A stretch of 64,000 bases of DNA from Rhynochetos jubatus (taxonomy: Eukaryota > Chordata > Aves > Eurypygiformes > Rhynochetidae): positions 102,955,086 to 103,019,085 of the forward strand of contig CM050650.1 of assembly GCA_027574665.1 (NCBI GenBank), written 5' to 3'. Below, in pieces: positions 20,741-25,839 of the stretch. The notes beneath the pieces are model-generated. The model did no database searches. It saw nothing but the letters and a program-made list of their open reading frames with translations, and was not told where the DNA came from. The translations under genes were made by a program, and so were the position numbers. Within the stretch, counting starts at the first letter, position 1, and each line of letters starts with the position of its first letter.

Positions 20741-20746
20741 ACAGAG
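20741..20746. repeat. Target-site duplication, left copy (ACAGAG)
   Basis: The six bases before the left LTR are ACAGAG. The same six bases follow the right LTR at 25834-25839. A perfect 6-bp duplication is what alpharetroviral integrases typically produce, and it confirms both LTR outer boundaries. Confidence 0.95.
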
Positions 20747-21012
20747 TGTTGCCTTCGCAAGGCGTGGCGACCTGGTTCAGGAACGGCACGGCGACCCCCC
20801 CCGGGCCGCTCGGGCCATCTGCTCACAGACACCAATGTGGTGGACGGCAAATGGCGTTTATTGATGTGTAACACCGCATTATATGGCTTAGGTTTGTCAC
20901 GTCACTTCCGTCTGTTTACATTGCAAACTACACGCTACTGGCTATCAGGGGAGGGTCCCTGTCTTTCCGTACAGCACGTAATCTTCCGGCCGCCAGATCC
21001 TAACTACCCACA
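20747..21012 (-). repeat. 3' LTR of provirus (left end of window copy)
   Basis: On the minus strand it begins TGTGGGTAG next to the polypurine tract and ends GCGAAGGCAACA. It is identical to the copy at 25568-25833 at all 266 positions, with no indels, including the 8-base C run. TG...CA termini are present. It supplies the 3' processing signal (AATAAA) for the proviral transcript. Confidence 0.97.
20857..20862 (-). terminator. Polyadenylation signal AATAAA in 3' LTR
   Basis: Minus-strand AATAAA lies just upstream of the predicted start of R (GCCATTTG), the same arrangement as in avian leukosis-type LTRs, where the signal sits at the U3/R border. In the 3' LTR it would direct cleavage roughly 20 bases downstream, near CCACA. 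The identical copy in the 5' LTR is upstream of the start site and so would not be transcribed. Confidence 0.8.
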
Positions 21013-21025
21013 TTTCCCCCCTCCC
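21013..21025 (-). other. Polypurine tract (plus-strand primer)
   Basis: On the minus strand this reads GGGAGGGGGGAAA, immediately followed by the LTR start TGTGGG. A purine-only run abutting U3 is the standard plus-strand primer site of retroviruses. It fixes the inner boundary of the 3' LTR. Confidence 0.93.
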
Positions 21026-21247
21026 TATGCGTAAGTAAATTGACTAAAATGTAACAATCTCGAAAATACGTATATCGCAATCTTGGAATTGTATCCCGTT
21101 CTTAAGCTATGCTTTACAACAATTTTGACACATATCATGAACTTGAATAAAAAATATAAGGCACGCTAGGTGAGAGGCAACAGGGGTGTTACTGGGAATA
21201 ACAGGGTATGACTGGAGATAGCTAAACAATTCTGAACAAGAACACTT
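21026..21247 (-). other. Proviral 3' untranslated region
   Basis: About 220 AT-rich bases between the env stop and the polypurine tract. No open frame or known motif was recognised. A 3' non-coding stretch here is where related avian retroviruses carry direct repeats or transport elements, but no repeat structure is visible by eye. Confidence 0.6.
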
Positions 21248-21682
21248 TTATAGCAATTGTCGGTATTCTATCATCATGATATTAACTGTTTCTAGCCGGC
21301 TTTTAACAAATGACATGAACTTATTCAATACATGGGGTCCAAAAATCAGTGCTATTACAATTATTATAATTGGCCCTATCAGGGTAGATATCAGGGAGGT
21401 CAGCCATGGTGAATGGTTAAACCATGATGCAAACCAGTTTTGTTGTGCTTCTCGTTCTTCTTTTTTCGCTTCTCCAATCCTTCTCGCACTTTCAGGTGTG
21501 GACAGGATGCTTGTTGACTTGCAGTCTTCTCCTGCTACCAGTGCGTACGGGTTATAAGGGCGTCTGATAAACCGGTTCTGTGGATAAAAACTCACAATTT
21601 TTGTTAGTTTCATTCTGAAGATTTGGTTTGATCGATTTAAGCGGACACCACTTAACTTTTCCATCTTTTTTAACCGCAGCAT
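21248..21682 (-). pseudogene. env: env remnant: C-terminal TM of gammaretrovirus type
   Basis: A 144-codon frame overlapping the 3' end of integrase. Residues about 68-144 are the end of a transmembrane subunit: a charged linker, QQNWFASWFNHSPWLTSL, a hydrophobic anchor at about residues 93-118 containing LIGPIIIIVIALIFGP, and a cytoplasmic tail ending at the stop. This 'WF..SPW..' pattern with a GP-rich anchor is characteristic of gammaretrovirus-type (CX6CC) envelope proteins. The upstream residues (about 1-67) are not recognised; they overlap pol and may hold a short piece of the env N-terminus. The surface subunit, fusion peptide, heptad repeats and CX6CC motif are all absent, so most of env has been deleted. 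It is not a functional envelope. Confidence 0.8.
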
Positions 21683-22349
21683 ACCCTCGTCCTGTAAGAA
21701 CTAGCCTCCACCCTTGTTCCCATTCCCCTAGCTTGTTTCTAATTATGACCAGCGGGCCTTCTTCTAGCGCTCGAGTAGCCCAATGTTTCTGGGTGGGGCT
21801 ATTCACCTCTTCCCCCCTAGGGAATTGATTCAGTGCTAACAGAGCAGTCGCTAGCAGGCGTGCTTGGTCTTTTGGGGGAACAGCATTGGTAAAACCTTCT
21901 GTTTTTGCTAACACCTCTAATTTAGCTTTCAGGGTTTGGTTCGCCCGTTCGACTATAGCTTGTCCAGTGCTATTATACGGGATGCCGTGTGTTAGGGTGA
22001 TACCCCATTTCAATGTAAATGCCTGGACAGATCTAGAGACGAAACTTGGGCCATTATCTGTTTTAATCTGATTGGGGACGCCAAGCCACGCCATGGCCGT
22101 CAGCCAATGTTGGATGGTCGCTTTCGAGTCGGCCTTAAGGTGTTGTGTGGCTACGATCACTCCACTGTATGTGTCTACGGTCACCGCTAGCCACGCTCGA
22201 GGTTTCAGCAATTGACAGAGCGTGAAATCTGTTTGCCACACCTCGGAGGCCTTAAGACCTCTGGGGTTGACTCCGCTAGACCACAATGGTGTTTTCTGAC
22301 AGTGGGGACATGTGGCTACTATGTGTTTTGCGTCAGTAATTGAGATCTC
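21552..22349 (-). pseudogene. pol: pol remnant: integrase (zinc-binding Cys pair, core, C-terminal domain)
   Basis: A frame open for about 265 codons directly after the A31 tract. It contains the CPHC half of the HHCC zinc finger, then the catalytic core: D in WQTDFT, D in TDNGPSF and E in IVERANQ. Exactly 35 residues lie between the second D and the E, as required for DDE retroviral integrases. The C-terminal domain (GEWEQGWRLVLTGRGYAAV) is intact and ends at the stop 21552-21554. Sequence style is closest to alpharetroviral integrase. The His pair of the zinc finger (LHESLHIG) lies on the other side of the A31 tract in a different frame, so the domain is not translated as one unit. A frame open from 22286 has only a non-ATG start. 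Confidence 0.92.
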
Positions 22350-22350
22350 G

Positions 22351-22351
<1 letters not shown>

Positions 22352-22382
<31 letters not shown>
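22352..22382 (-). repeat. A31 homopolymer interrupting integrase
   Basis: 31 consecutive T on the plus strand (A on the minus strand) sit inside the integrase zinc-binding region, between the His pair and the Cys pair. The tract changes the reading frame; the upstream frame reads a lysine run and stops at 22319. Related integrases carry only a short stretch of about two residues here. It could be real expansion, a poly(A) insertion during reverse transcription, or an assembly error. Confidence 0.9.
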
Positions 22383-22385
<3 letters not shown>

Positions 22386-22924
22386 AGCGCTTTAGCTCCG
22401 ATGTGGAGAGACTCATGTAGCTGACGAGCATCTCTTAACGTCCACAGTCCTTTTGCAGCGGCGTCTGCCTTGTCGTTGCCGGTTTGGAAAAACCCTTTGA
22501 TTGGGTTGTGGCTGTTTGTGAACACGACAGAAAAAGCAAACCGCTCCTTGTCTTCCTCATGCAATGGTATTGAAAAGAAACAGTCTTTAATATCAAGGAC
22601 AGCACACGGTTGCCCTTCTGGTATCATGGAGTTTATGGGCAGCAGTGTTTGAACGGGACCCATTGGTTGAATTATCTTATTTACTTCACGCAGGTCATGA
22701 AGGAGACGAAACCCTTCGTTGGTTCGTTTGGGTATTACAAAAACTGGTGTGTTCCATGGGCTAGTGGAAGGCTCTATATGACCTCGCTGTAGTTCACGGT
22801 CGACTAGCTCAAGAAGAGCGTCCATTCGAGGCTTTGATAGGGGCCACTGCTCGACCCACACCGGGTCGGACGATTTCCACGTGAGTTTAATAGGTGGAAG
22901 TGGGTGTGCGGCAGTGGCCCTCAT
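22353..22924 (-). pseudogene. pol: pol remnant: N-terminal RT fused to RNase H end and integrase start
   Basis: Starts at the ATG overlapping the protease stop (ATGA) and lies in the -1 frame relative to protease. Residues 27-133 are RT fingers and early palm: WPLSKPRMDALLELV, SPWNTPVFVIPKR, LLHDLREVNK, and motif A with the catalytic Asp in AVLDIKDCFFSI (residue 111). At about residues 133-137 (near 22513-22526) it jumps to the end of RNase H (SHNPIKGFFQTGNDKADAAA, residues 138-157), then the integrase N-terminus with the zinc-binding His pair (LHESLHIG). The YxDD active site, thumb, connection and most of RNase H are missing, about 1.3 kb. The protein could not be an active polymerase. It then runs into the A31 tract. 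Confidence 0.92.
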
Positions 22925-23493
22925 GATAAATTTGTCACCCTGGCTTTCAAAAGGGATAGAGCGTCCCTTCCCAATAGGGGTGGGGTTCCTGACATGACAT
23001 ATGGAAAGAGGGTAATGGTTTTTTCTGGTCCCTTTTCAGTGTGAAGCGTTATTGCTACCAATTGAGTACTCTTCCGAGCTCGGGTTAGTCCTCCGACTCC
23101 ACCTACCATGGGGGCGTTTTCCAATTTCCAATGGGGGGGCCAATTCGTTTCAGGGATAACTGTAACATCTGCTCCGGTGTCAATCAAAAAGGGGATACTA
23201 ATAGTGGTGTCATTTAAGGTATTATAGAGGGAACAAATCCCCCATACAACTGGTGGACTATCGCATTTTACTGCCAGGGCCACCCTAAGGTCTCGTCCCC
23301 AGGAGCTGGTTGTTGCTGCTCCTGAGGTAGGGACTGGTTTGGATGGTTCGTTGGTGGAGTCATAAAATTGGTTGGTTCTCGAGGGGGCAGTAGGTTCCAT
23401 CTGGGGTTGGCATAACTGGGCCGCCTTATGTCCCAAGCGGGAGAGGGCTGTGCGCGGCCCGGGTGCCCCCTCCCCCATACGTTTCCCTGGTTT
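22921..23493 (-). CDS. pro: Retroviral aspartic protease frame
   Basis: Open from just after an in-frame TAA (23494-23496) to the TGA at 22921-22923. Counting from the first ATG (23478), residues 97-109 contain the active-site motif FLIDTGADVTVIP, residues 125-130 a glycine-rich flap (VGGVGG) and residues 168-172 LLGRD, the conserved segment near the end of the domain. The domain looks complete and its key residues are intact. It would be made as part of a Gag fusion, not from its own start. It is in the same frame as the 5' part of gag but separated from it by stops. The end overlaps pol by ATGA and carries a frameshift heptamer. Confidence 0.9.
   Translation of the reverse strand, partial: KPGKRMGEGAPGPRTALSRLGHKAAQLCQPQMEPTAPSRTNQFYDSTNEPSKPVPTSGAATTSSWGRDLRVALAVKCDSPPVVWGICSLYNTLNDTTISIPFLIDTGADVTVIPETNWPPHWKLENAPMVGGVGGLTRARKSTQLVAITLHTEKGPEKTITLFPYVMSGTPPLLGRDALSLLKARVTNLS
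22927..22933 (-). promoter_or_regulatory. -1 ribosomal frameshift heptamer AAATTTA (pro to pol)
   Basis: Minus-strand A AAT TTA lies in the correct phase (ACA AAT TTA) three codons before the protease stop TGA. This is the heptamer used at the gag-pol junction of avian sarcoma-leukosis viruses. Slipping back one base enters the pol frame, which overlaps the stop by ATGA. A downstream stem-loop or pseudoknot is expected in the following pol sequence but I did not fold it. Confidence 0.82.
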
Positions 23494-23580
23494 TTAAATT
23501 TGCATTCTTTAGCGAAATGTCCTTTCTTTCCACAGGCCCAACACGGTCCCCTCGGTCGATTTTGACGCGGGGGGGGGGGC
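23268..23580 (-). pseudogene. gag: gag 3' segment: second nucleocapsid zinc knuckle, shifted frame
   Basis: After the C11 tract the second CCHC knuckle (CWACGKKGHFAKEC) is in the +1 frame relative to the rest of gag. The frame continues through a Pro/Gln-rich stretch (NHPNQSLPQEQQQPAPG) to TAA at 23268-23270. The protease frame is -1 relative to this segment and overlaps it for about 220 bases. I found no good XXXYYYZ slippery heptamer in the overlap in the right phase. That leaves open whether the original layout was gag/pro in one frame (as in alpharetroviruses, with two compensating indels here) or in separate frames. Confidence 0.85.
23569..23579 (-). repeat. C11 tract causing the gag frameshift
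   Basis: Eleven G on the plus strand (C on the minus strand) lie between the two nucleocapsid zinc-knuckle segments, which are in different frames on its two sides. A one-base length change in the tract is the simplest explanation. Homopolymers of this length are also a common sequencing error. Confidence 0.85.
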
Positions 23581-25440
23581 TGTGGGTGGGTCCCCAAAGT
23601 AAGGGCAGTTTGCCACTATGTGGCCTGCCTGACCACATTTAAAACATACCATCACATTAGCTATTGCGGTGCGAACAGCTACCTGAATTGGGGCTAAATG
23701 CTCTTCCTTTGCGACATGCTTGATCATGGCTGCGATACTTGACCCTGCTGGCAGTGATCGCAGGATTTCTTTGGTTGCCGAATTACACTGCTGGCGTAAA
23801 CAATCTGCAACGACCGGGCCTTTCGCTTCCGCGGGCAGGGTCGAGGAGTCGACCGCTGCTTGAAGGCGATCCACAAACTGCGTAAAGCTCTCGCTTTCAT
23901 TTTGCTTAATTGTGGACCATGGTGATGGCTTGACAATAACTCTAGAAGCGGTGCGAATAGCTTCTCTAGCCGCGCGAGTAGTTGTCACAATTTCATAGGC
24001 CCCCAGGCCCTGGGCCTGCGCCTGGGGGGTAATCATTGTTGGGTCTGTACCTATCAGCCGCTGCACGCCAGACCCATATAGTGGGTGATCCGCCCCGGTT
24101 ACTTGGGCTAGTTGCCTCACGCAGTTGTCCTCCCATTCTTGTTTAAAAACAATCATTCCTGCCCCATCAAAGATCAATCTACACATTTGTTTTATATCAA
24201 ACGGGAGCAGATCGTCTCCCCCGAAAATACCATCTATGAGGGTGCAGACCATGGCAGAATTAAGCCCTTTATCTGCAATTGCCTTAGCAATCGCTTGTAT
24301 ATCCTTAGGGTTTATTGGCGAGTGGACCCTCTGTCCCCTGTCTGTCACCCGGACCGGGAACGCTAGCGTGGCTGATGGGGCCCAATCGGCACACGCAATT
24401 TTTATTTTCCTCCAATCAGTGAGAGGAATATTTTCCTCTCGGGGTCCCTTTTTATTTTGGATGGGAGTATTTTGGCTTTTGAATGTATCTAGTCTCATTT
24501 CCTCCTCCTCTGAGTTTGAATCGGTTGCGAGCCGCTCGTCCCAGCTAGTGTCTGACTCAGAGCCGGAGCTCGACTGACCGGGTACTTCCGGTTTTCCGTA
24601 CCTTTTTGTTGGGACCCGGCCCCGCCCGCTTCTTCTGTGGGCGGGTCGTTCCCTCCCTCTTGACTCGGCCCTCCTTCCTGTGTCGTCCCGCCCTCTGCGC
24701 GGCGGGGTGTTCGCCCTACTGGGGCGTTTCTCCAGATGGCCGCTGTGATTGGCTTTCCGCCCTTCGATCACGCTCCCCTCCTTCCCCCTATCGCCCCCGC
24801 CCTCTTTCTCTTTCCCGTTCTCGTCCCTTTCTTGTTCTCGCGCGTTTGTTAGTGCTGACGCTTCCTCCTTATCTCCACCACTGGCATCTTCGCCCCGCCC
24901 TTCTTCTTTCTGTCCGGCGCCATTTTGGGGCGTATAGGGCGGCGGTTTAACCCAACCCTCCTCCGACTCTGGTCTCTCCGCCGCGCCCCTGGCTTCCTCG
25001 GCTAGCCCACCCCAGAAAGATTTAGCTTGTTTCTGCGCTTCCGTAGGCGGGTCGGGGTTCGGGAGTTGAGGGGGCGTGTCGCCCTCTTGCCGGTCTTTAG
25101 GCTCAGCAGAATCATTACCGTCTGGGGGGTGCAAAGTCTGTGTGGCTGCCCCGACTGCCGTTTTCGGGGCGGCCAACAAACGGTCCTTTGCCACCCTCCA
25201 GGTCTCCTGTTCTTTTAAAGTCTTCTGCAGTGCCTGTACGACTCTCCCCCACGACTTAAGGTTTTTCCCACAGCCCGAGGACATAGTCTCCTCGGCTAAC
25301 GCTTTAGTGTATTTATCCCACACCTCAGGGTGGAAAATATCCACTGGCTGGTCAATGACCCCAGTTTTAAAAGGCCTCGCAACTGCGAGAGTAAAATCTT
25401 TGGGTTTACAATCAATACCCCACTGCTCATATAATAACAA

Positions 25441-25447
25441 TACGACC
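25441..25447 (-). promoter_or_regulatory. Candidate subgenomic splice donor in gag codon 6/7
   Basis: Minus-strand AAG|GTCGTA begins right after the sixth gag codon, the same position as the env splice donor of avian leukosis viruses. The intron side GTCGTA is a poor match to consensus, so its use is uncertain. If used, env mRNA would carry the first six Gag codons. Confidence 0.45.
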
Positions 25448-25464
25448 TTCACAAGGGCTTCCAT

Positions 25465-25547
25465 CCTCCTTGTTGGTCCGGGAGCGTCCTCCCCGCCGGG
25501 CTGGTCCAGCCGCTCCGGCCGCCGTTCACCCGAATCCAGGCGAGTTT
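25465..25547 (-). other. Proviral 5' leader (PBS to gag)
   Basis: Only 83 bases separate the PBS from the gag ATG, GC-rich and with no upstream ATG. This is much shorter than the leader of exogenous avian leukosis viruses (a few hundred bases). The packaging signal must be short, extend into gag, or be partly deleted. Confidence 0.75.
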
Positions 25548-25565
25548 TCCCGGGTTTCGGCACCA
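25548..25565 (-). other. Primer binding site, tRNA-Phe
   Basis: Minus-strand TGGTGCCGAAACCCGGGA lies two bases (AG) after the 5' LTR. It is complementary over 18 bases to the 3' end of vertebrate tRNA-Phe(GAA) including CCA. Avian leukosis-type viruses use tRNA-Trp, so the primer choice differs from that of its closest-looking exogenous relatives. Confidence 0.9.
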
Positions 25566-25567
25566 CT

Positions 25568-25833
25568 TGTTGCCTTCGCAAGGCGTGGCGACCTGGTTCA
25601 GGAACGGCACGGCGACCCCCCCCGGGCCGCTCGGGCCATCTGCTCACAGACACCAATGTGGTGGACGGCAAATGGCGTTTATTGATGTGTAACACCGCAT
25701 TATATGGCTTAGGTTTGTCACGTCACTTCCGTCTGTTTACATTGCAAACTACACGCTACTGGCTATCAGGGGAGGGTCCCTGTCTTTCCGTACAGCACGT
25801 AATCTTCCGGCCGCCAGATCCTAACTACCCACA
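25568..25833 (-). repeat. 5' LTR of provirus
   Basis: 266 bp, identical to the 3' LTR at 20747-21012. Read on the minus strand, U3 is about 155 bases (25833 to about 25677), a short R follows and the rest is U5, ending ...GGCAACA before the PBS. It contains the proviral promoter described in the next entries. Such a short U3 is unusual but self-consistent. Confidence 0.97.
25676..25749 (-). promoter_or_regulatory. Proviral promoter: C/EBP-like, ETS/CRE-like sites and TATA
   Basis: On the minus strand, in order: GTTTGCAATGT (25739-25749, C/EBP-like), GGAAGTG followed by GTGACGTGA (25718-25726, CRE-like), CCATATAATG (25698-25707, TATA-like), then AATAAAC and GCCATTTG. By analogy with avian leukosis LTRs, transcription would start at the G near 25676, about 28 bases after the TATA. 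C/EBP-type sites are also typical of avian leukosis enhancers. Factor binding is inferred from motif only. Confidence 0.7.
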
Positions 25834-25839
25834 ACAGAG
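25834..25839. repeat. Target-site duplication, right copy (ACAGAG)
   Basis: Exact match to 20741-20746. The empty allele is predicted to carry a single ACAGAG joining the two host flanks. Confidence 0.95.

What the first reader, a model, noticed from the sequence alone, without database searches (positions are those of the whole stretch)
21248..22924. Young LTRs on a genome with two large internal deletions
Pol jumps from mid-RT to the end of RNase H (near 22513-22526), and env lacks everything except the C-terminal part of TM. Such decay is odd with LTRs showing no mutation. The missing lengths (about 1.3 kb and about 1.2 kb) roughly account for the gap to a 7.5-kb full genome. The simplest reading is that the deletions predate integration and the defective RNA was copied with helper-virus proteins. 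It may be a non-autonomous family that keeps gag and protease.
Basis: partly seen in the sequence, partly recalled or inferred. Interest (0 to 1): 0.75.

Follow-up and report, generated by a model that had tools for sequence, protein, structure and literature searches.

The report
Bird retroelement copied by its relatives
This is one copy of a large, recently active bird retroelement family that has lost its copying enzyme and envelope, sits at about a hundred places with the same break, and so most likely spread using enzymes made by related copies, as defective retroelements do in mice.

Summary
The provirus (window 20747-25833, minus strand; identical 266-bp LTRs, 6-bp target duplication) lacks 1251 bp of pol, in frame, joined at a 9-nt direct repeat, and about 1.57 kb of env. 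Both breaks recur: the pol join at 96 places, the env join at 141. 38 sampled pol-deleted insertions carry their own 5-6-bp duplications.

The two deletions differ in age. Env went first: 17 of 17 close copies that keep the reverse transcriptase (RT) region share the env break. The pol deletion most likely arose once, from such an env-less copy. By these searches the deleted form outnumbers its close RT-bearing relatives 96 to 17. A sublineage that also lost the integrase frame is the youngest sampled.

Best reading: a non-autonomous family spread by RT (later all Pol) from env-less relatives, closely parallel to mouse IAP I-delta-1. Mobilisation in trans is inferred, not assayed. New member of a known kind; the stepwise series of losses in one bird genome is its interest.

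The parts
25568..25833 (-). 5' LTR, 266 bp, TG...CA
   Evidence: identical to 20747-21012; ends read
20747..21012 (-). 3' LTR, 266 bp
25834..25839 (+). target-site duplication, 5' side of element
20741..20746 (+). target-site duplication, 3' side of element
25548..25565 (-). primer-binding site, looks complementary to tRNA-Phe (tRNA identity recalled, from no call)
   Evidence: leader read
21013..21027 (-). polypurine tract next to 3' LTR
   Evidence: same tract at all 14 3' LTR loci fetched
23509..25464 (-). gag frame from its ATG (MA, CA, first zinc knuckle); breaks near NC in this copy
23569..23579 (-). 11-base C run in NC (element strand); around it this copy's gag changes frame
23481..23487 (-). 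candidate gag-pro shift heptamer, in gag frame in copies with open frames (motif class recalled)
22921..23493 (-). protease frame, 190 aa, retropepsin
22927..22933 (-). candidate pro-pol shift heptamer (motif class recalled)
   Evidence: altered in 8 of 8 B-type copies
22319..23035 (-). pol frame: RT N-terminal part joined in frame to the end of RNase H
22508..22516 (-). pol deletion join: one copy left of a 9-nt direct repeat of the undeleted 6-kb copies; 1251 bp missing
22352..22382 (-). 31-A run in the integrase zinc-binding region, breaks the frame in this copy
21552..22391 (-). integrase frame
21486..21490 (-). env deletion join (about 21488); about 1.57 kb missing
21248..21487 (-). remaining C-terminal part of TM

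Best explanation
The window holds one member of a non-autonomous endogenous retrovirus subfamily. Shown: an env-less lineage that keeps the RT, RNase H and integrase region exists in the same genome; a form lacking 1251 bp of that region, joined at a 9-nt direct repeat, sits at 96 places, with its own target duplication at 38 of those sampled. Inferred: one older member of the env-less lineage lost this stretch during copying. Because the deleted form has no RT active site and little RNase H, its RNA (which keeps LTRs, PBS, leader and PPT) was packaged with the RNA and Gag-Pro-Pol of RT-bearing relatives, copied by their RT and integrated. The same co-packaging explains why alleles are exchanged between the two forms. 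At first the deleted form kept an open RT-fragment/integrase frame; a later sublineage (B) also lost that frame and has an altered pro-pol shift motif, yet is the youngest sampled, so by then all of Pol came from other copies.
For: Shared pol join: 13 of 13 short LTR pairs, absent from 4 of 4 long ones; 96 places, control 0. Own TSDs. Single origin: same join and same left-flank allele in 30 of 30 loci and in the 12 further copies; among 15 close RT-bearing copies read there (11 of 13, 4) 12 carry another allele, 1 a third, and the 2 least similar ones the allele of the deleted form, as do 2 of 4 older relatives. The catalytic YxDD motif lies in the missing part; an 833-aa relative aligns with a gap of the same size. 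RT-bearing copies: 30 of 30 candidates scored, 17 at 98-100%; 3 of 4 read have no stop in 1988 nt of RT-RNase H-integrase. Exchange: 6 of 6 shared variants near the end of integrase segregate in both 36 deleted and 15 RT-bearing copies; four-gamete violations in 40 of 91 site pairs. Overlap in time: LTR-pair differences; four RT-bearing pairs also have LTRs identical to the window's.
Against: No expression, particle or transposition data. The LTR search ranked copies by identity to the window LTR (40 of 355 candidates scored), so zero divergence there is partly selection. Some places share 8-base flanks and are probably duplicated blocks, not insertions (C117, C116 and C34; two on C30; three on C32; C29 and C146). 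One sampled deleted copy had no TSD (C48:18728270). Recurrence of the deletion at the repeat, rather than one origin, is not strictly excluded. The RT-bearing copies were read for stops in only 4 of 17, and not for function.
Confidence: 0.92

Rival explanations
1. Deletions happened in each provirus after integration, or are assembly errors.
For: Short direct repeats can mediate genomic deletion; the join does lie on a 9-nt repeat.
Against: 95 exact and 1 near-exact copies of the same join, with the same linked left-flank allele in 30 of 30 read, would need about a hundred identical accidents; separate TSDs.
Confidence: 0.02
2. The deleted form spread by duplication of host DNA blocks rather than by retrotransposition.
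For: Some places share flanks: C117/C116/C34 and two on C30.
Against: 38 sampled insertions have their own TSD.
Confidence: 0.03
3. The helper was an exogenous or env-bearing endogenous virus, not the env-less RT-bearing copies.
For: Env-bearing relatives exist in the genome (C115:4025891 and C1:143103217), and integrase relatives up to 92% identical are listed from other birds. Infecting new germ cells would need an Env from somewhere.
Against: The two env-bearing copies read have 3' LTRs only 90 and 93% identical to this one and RT pieces 91 and 96% identical to the close group, whereas env-less RT-bearing copies have identical or nearly identical LTRs and share alleles with the deleted form.
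Confidence: 0.12
4. The integrase kept by A-type deleted copies is made and used by them in cis, so that only RT is borrowed.
For: 22 of 27 readable A-search loci stay open from the join to the integrase stop; variants shared between deleted copies are mostly silent (3 replacement, 12 silent; expected ratio 2.4 to 1).
Against: Unshared variants are less skewed (15 replacement, 13 silent). The silent excess can come by exchange with RT-bearing copies. The B type, whose frame is broken, shows few replacement changes too (3 of 8 variants, 6 copies) and is the youngest sampled.
Confidence: 0.3

Closest known systems
Mouse IAP type I-delta-1
   Same: Env-less parent; one shared internal deletion in gag-pol that keeps a frame open; non-autonomous; needs proteins in trans from full-length relatives; causes most new insertions (PMC6466679 and PMC7411935, passages seen).
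   Different: There a 1.9-kb deletion fuses gag to pol; here gag and pro are untouched and 1251 bp of RT/RNase H are lost. Avian and alpharetrovirus-like, not IAP. No transposition assay here.
Mouse ETn/MusD and VL30/MLV pairs
   Same: Non-autonomous LTR element moved by a coding relative or retrovirus (PMC6466679, passages).
   Different: ETn and VL30 internal regions are largely non-coding or replaced (recalled); here the deleted form keeps gag, pro and often an integrase frame.
Chicken EAV-HP / GGERV10 and ART-CH
   Same: Young avian elements with defective internal genes; [quoted passage not shown]
   Different: Sequences not compared here. The passages seen describe no shared in-frame RT/RNase H break beside an RT-bearing env-less relative.

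Membership tests
Non-autonomous (internally deleted) endogenous retrovirus subfamily | Same internal breakpoints at many independent insertions | tested here: met
   96 places, control 0; 38 sampled insertions with own TSD
Non-autonomous (internally deleted) endogenous retrovirus subfamily | An enzyme needed for copying is missing | tested here: met
   417 codons of RT and RNase H missing, including the catalytic motif
Non-autonomous (internally deleted) endogenous retrovirus subfamily | Cis signals kept: LTRs, PBS, leader, PPT | tested here: met
Non-autonomous (internally deleted) endogenous retrovirus subfamily | Related coding copies of similar age in the same genome | tested here: met
   17 close RT-bearing copies, LTR pairs; 4 read for stops over 1988 nt, 3 without any
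Non-autonomous (internally deleted) endogenous retrovirus subfamily | Mobilisation in trans seen directly | not testable with these tools
   needs an assay; step referred
Genus Alpharetrovirus | Enzymes closest to RSV-type proteins | tested here: met
   integrase hits include chains named RSV and avian sarcoma virus integrase (1c0m, E 2e-70), best other group E 5.9e-43; protease top hits RSV/MAV at about 2e-13, HIV-1 single chains 1.9e-6 or weaker, though tethered HIV-1 dimers reach 5.4e-13; Retro_M domain
Genus Alpharetrovirus | Protease in the gag frame (recalled as the genus rule) | tested here: not met
   gag, pro and pol lie in three frames in copies with open frames
Genus Alpharetrovirus | tRNA-Trp primer (recalled) | tested here: inconclusive
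   PBS read; assignment to tRNA-Phe is recalled, no tRNA gene was searched
IAP I-delta-1 | IAP sequence | tested here: not met
   alpharetrovirus-like enzymes; it works like it, it is not it
IAP I-delta-1 | Env-less, frame-keeping gag-pol deletion dependent on full-length relatives | tested here: inconclusive
   env-less and in-frame pol deletion met; dependence inferred only

The most novel reading that the evidence does not exclude
One bird genome holds a ladder of parasitism in which each loss (env, then RT/RNase H, then the whole Pol frame, perhaps in parallel most of gag-pol) was followed by a new burst, and deleted RNAs keep exchanging segments with their helper by co-packaging, so that the excess of deleted copies may now limit the RT-bearing lineage.
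Probability: 0.3. Interest if true: 0.7.

Novelty: new member of a known kind. Interest (0 to 1): 0.5.

Why it matters
The best-described non-autonomous retroviruses with a young helper in the papers seen here are those of mice. This is a separate vertebrate case in which the parent, a first-step parasite, a second-step parasite and the exchange between them can all be read from one genome, so the order of losses and the dependence on enzymes from other copies can be tested in populations.

Tried and rejected
Deletion after integration and misassembly: rejected by 96 shared joins and by own TSDs. Window copy as representative: rejected; its A run and C run break frames that many relatives keep open. 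The idea that both deletions arose together: rejected, since RT-bearing copies already lack env. The same pol fusion in other birds: none of the 120 hits listed (of 425) covers the whole query in one alignment (best listed coverage 85%); a Chaetura protein lacking RT has other break points. The phage collection gave no match. Selection on gag: the first 465 codons give about the neutral replacement ratio among 15 copies, 14 of them without a stop, so no claim is made.

Rows dropped before counts: LTR-pair sums leave out 4 of 23 deleted rows (two of C117/C116/C34 and one of two on C30 with shared flanks, and one outlier with 24 differences near one LTR end) and 4 of 13 RT-bearing rows (one of C29/C146, two of three on C32 with shared flanks, and one with 12 differences and no TSD); one RT-bearing 3' LTR was cut at 244 bases. 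Integrase variation uses 39 of 42 loci (3 lacked the anchor); the exchange test drops one more RT-bearing row for a gap. Frame reading uses 27 of 30 loci (3 lacked the anchor), and the shift motif 27 of 30. The 10 B-type LTR pairs were chosen among the 31 with a perfect 181-bp match, so they lean young.

Full report
The element. The provirus lies on the minus strand at 20747-25833. Its 266-bp LTRs are identical, begin TG and end CA, and are flanked by the 6-bp duplication ACAGAG. PBS, a 103-nt leader, gag, pro, part of pol, a remnant of env and a polypurine tract follow in order. Integrase matches chains named RSV and avian sarcoma virus integrase best, protease RSV/MAV, and MA is of the Retro_M type. 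But gag, pro and pol lie in three frames in copies with open frames, with a candidate shift heptamer in each overlap, a layout recalled as betaretroviral. The env remnant is the end of a TM with relatives in raptors, petrels, a crane and others.

The pol break. Compared with 6-kb relatives in the same genome, 1251 bp (417 codons) are missing; both edges of the missing stretch carry the same 9-nt repeat, as expected of a template switch during reverse transcription (inference). The missing part holds the catalytic YxDD motif. An independent 833-aa relative from the protein database aligns with a gap of the same size.

The family. The window LTR has 355 candidate matches in its 1.33-Gb genome; the 40 scored were all identical over 266 bp. 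By position they form 17 LTR pairs: 13 spaced about 4.8 kb and 4 about 6.05 kb. All 13 short ones, the window's included, share the pol join; none of the 4 long ones does. DNA queries over the join gave 40 of 40 and 40 of 40 scored matches spanning it (156 candidates each). A pattern count gave 96 places, 95 exact and 1 with one mismatch, control 0.

Independent insertions. The 12 elements all have 5-6-bp TSDs (9 deleted, 3 RT-bearing). In one search, 22 of 23 deleted and 11 of 13 RT-bearing copies have one; of the two RT-bearing copies without, one piece was cut before the flank. Some share flanks and are counted once. In one search, 10 of 10 have TSDs. This leaves 38 deleted insertions with their own TSD.

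Order of events. 17 of 17 close RT-bearing copies lack env at the same point (3, 13, the one on C1 by its join); at least one 96% copy does too (L091). Of three more distant copies looked at, C115:4025891 and C1:143103217 keep env there: against them the env deletion is 1569 and 1563 bp (positions), and the extra stretch matches TLV_coat at E 4.7e-70 and 1.7e-109. The third (C18) was not resolved. So env loss came first. The allele just left of the pol join is the same in 30 of 30 loci. Of 11 close RT-bearing copies read there, 8 carry another allele, 1 a third, and the 2 least similar carry that of the deleted form; the 4 carry the other allele. Of 4 older relatives 2 carry the allele of the deleted form and 2 do not. 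The simplest reading is one deletion, in an env-less copy older than the present youngest RT-bearing ones.

Two deleted types. Copies found with the window's own join (A type) often keep an open frame from the RT fragment to the integrase stop: 22 of 27 read, 18 of these open back to the start of the pol frame; 5 are broken, 4 of them, the window among them, with a visibly expanded A run. A second type (B; 8 of the 13 short LTR pairs) has a one-base insertion just after the join that closes this frame and an altered pro-pol shift motif in 8 of 8, against 5 of 27 in the A search. The 3' part of gag and the protease frame are both open in 6 of 8 B copies. LTR pairs differ by 2 in 2660 bp for 10 B copies, 26 in about 5054 for 19 A-search copies and 8 in about 2394 for 9 RT-bearing copies after dropping shared flanks and outliers. 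At a recalled avian rate of 2e-9 per site and year this is about 0.2, 1.3 and 0.8 million years; the samples were not drawn evenly and the B sample leans young. The type that can make no Pol of its own is the youngest sampled, the clearest sign of supply in trans.

Exchange. Six of six shared variants near the end of integrase segregate in both 36 deleted and 15 RT-bearing copies (duplicates not removed), and 40 of 91 pairs of shared sites fail the four-gamete test within deleted copies. This fits recombination in particles that hold both RNAs; recurrent mutation could add to it. It also means that the silent excess in integrase (3 replacement, 12 silent among shared variants; 15 and 13 among unshared) cannot be read as proof that deleted copies use their own integrase.

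Numbers. RT-bearing copies: 30 of 30 candidates scored, 17 at 98-100%, 8 at 95-96%, 5 at 91-93%. By these searches the deleted form has 96 places against 30, and against 17 close ones, duplicates included on both sides. The env join is at 141 places, of which 100 were listed: 65 have the pol join, 15 an RT piece and 20 neither. Eight of the 20 were looked at: 6 have gag MA sequence where pol should be, in one register, one has MA and CA in another register, one has its LTR there. Three of those 6 are identical over 501 bases, and some lie near contig ends, so duplication is likely for them. This points to a further, shorter class not worked out here.

Literature. Passages of PMC6466679 and PMC7411935 describe IAP I-delta-1: env-less parent, 1.9-kb gag-pol deletion with a fusion frame, dependence on proteins in trans, most new insertions. 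Passages of PMC4607243, PMC5260121 and PMC5006616 cover chicken elements, the first with a presumed helper. The searches listed no row that, by title or abstract start, describes this family; for most rows only the listing was seen, and the library lacks most subscription journals.

Noticed in passing
window 22352-22382; L035, L037, L042, L044, L036: A run at one point of integrase, 17 to 43 long in these copies and short in many others, in deleted copies and in one RT-bearing copy; a hypervariable tract that sometimes keeps the frame.
   Followed up: partly
G000 C1:100124869, C2:85956325, C4:476305, C5:77229760, C7:548598, C25:12814990 (L199, L201-L204, L206): A further class with the env break but MA sequence where pol should be, same register in 6 of 8 looked at; L202-L204 identical, perhaps duplication near contig ends.
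   Followed up: partly
G000 C115 (6 RT pieces, 3.1-4.1 Mb) and C18 (4 RT pieces, 8.7-9.0 Mb): Clusters of older RT-bearing relatives; the one C115 copy read keeps env.
   Followed up: partly
window 21552-22391: Integrase 87-92% identical to penguin, heron, rail and turaco proteins: spread among distant bird orders may be recent.
   Followed up: no
P0152: A Chaetura pelagica protein with protease and integrase but no RT domain, with other break points; perhaps a parallel deletion or a gene-model effect.
   Followed up: partly
window 22921-23493 and overlaps: Alpharetrovirus-like enzymes with gag, pro and pol in three frames.
   Followed up: partly
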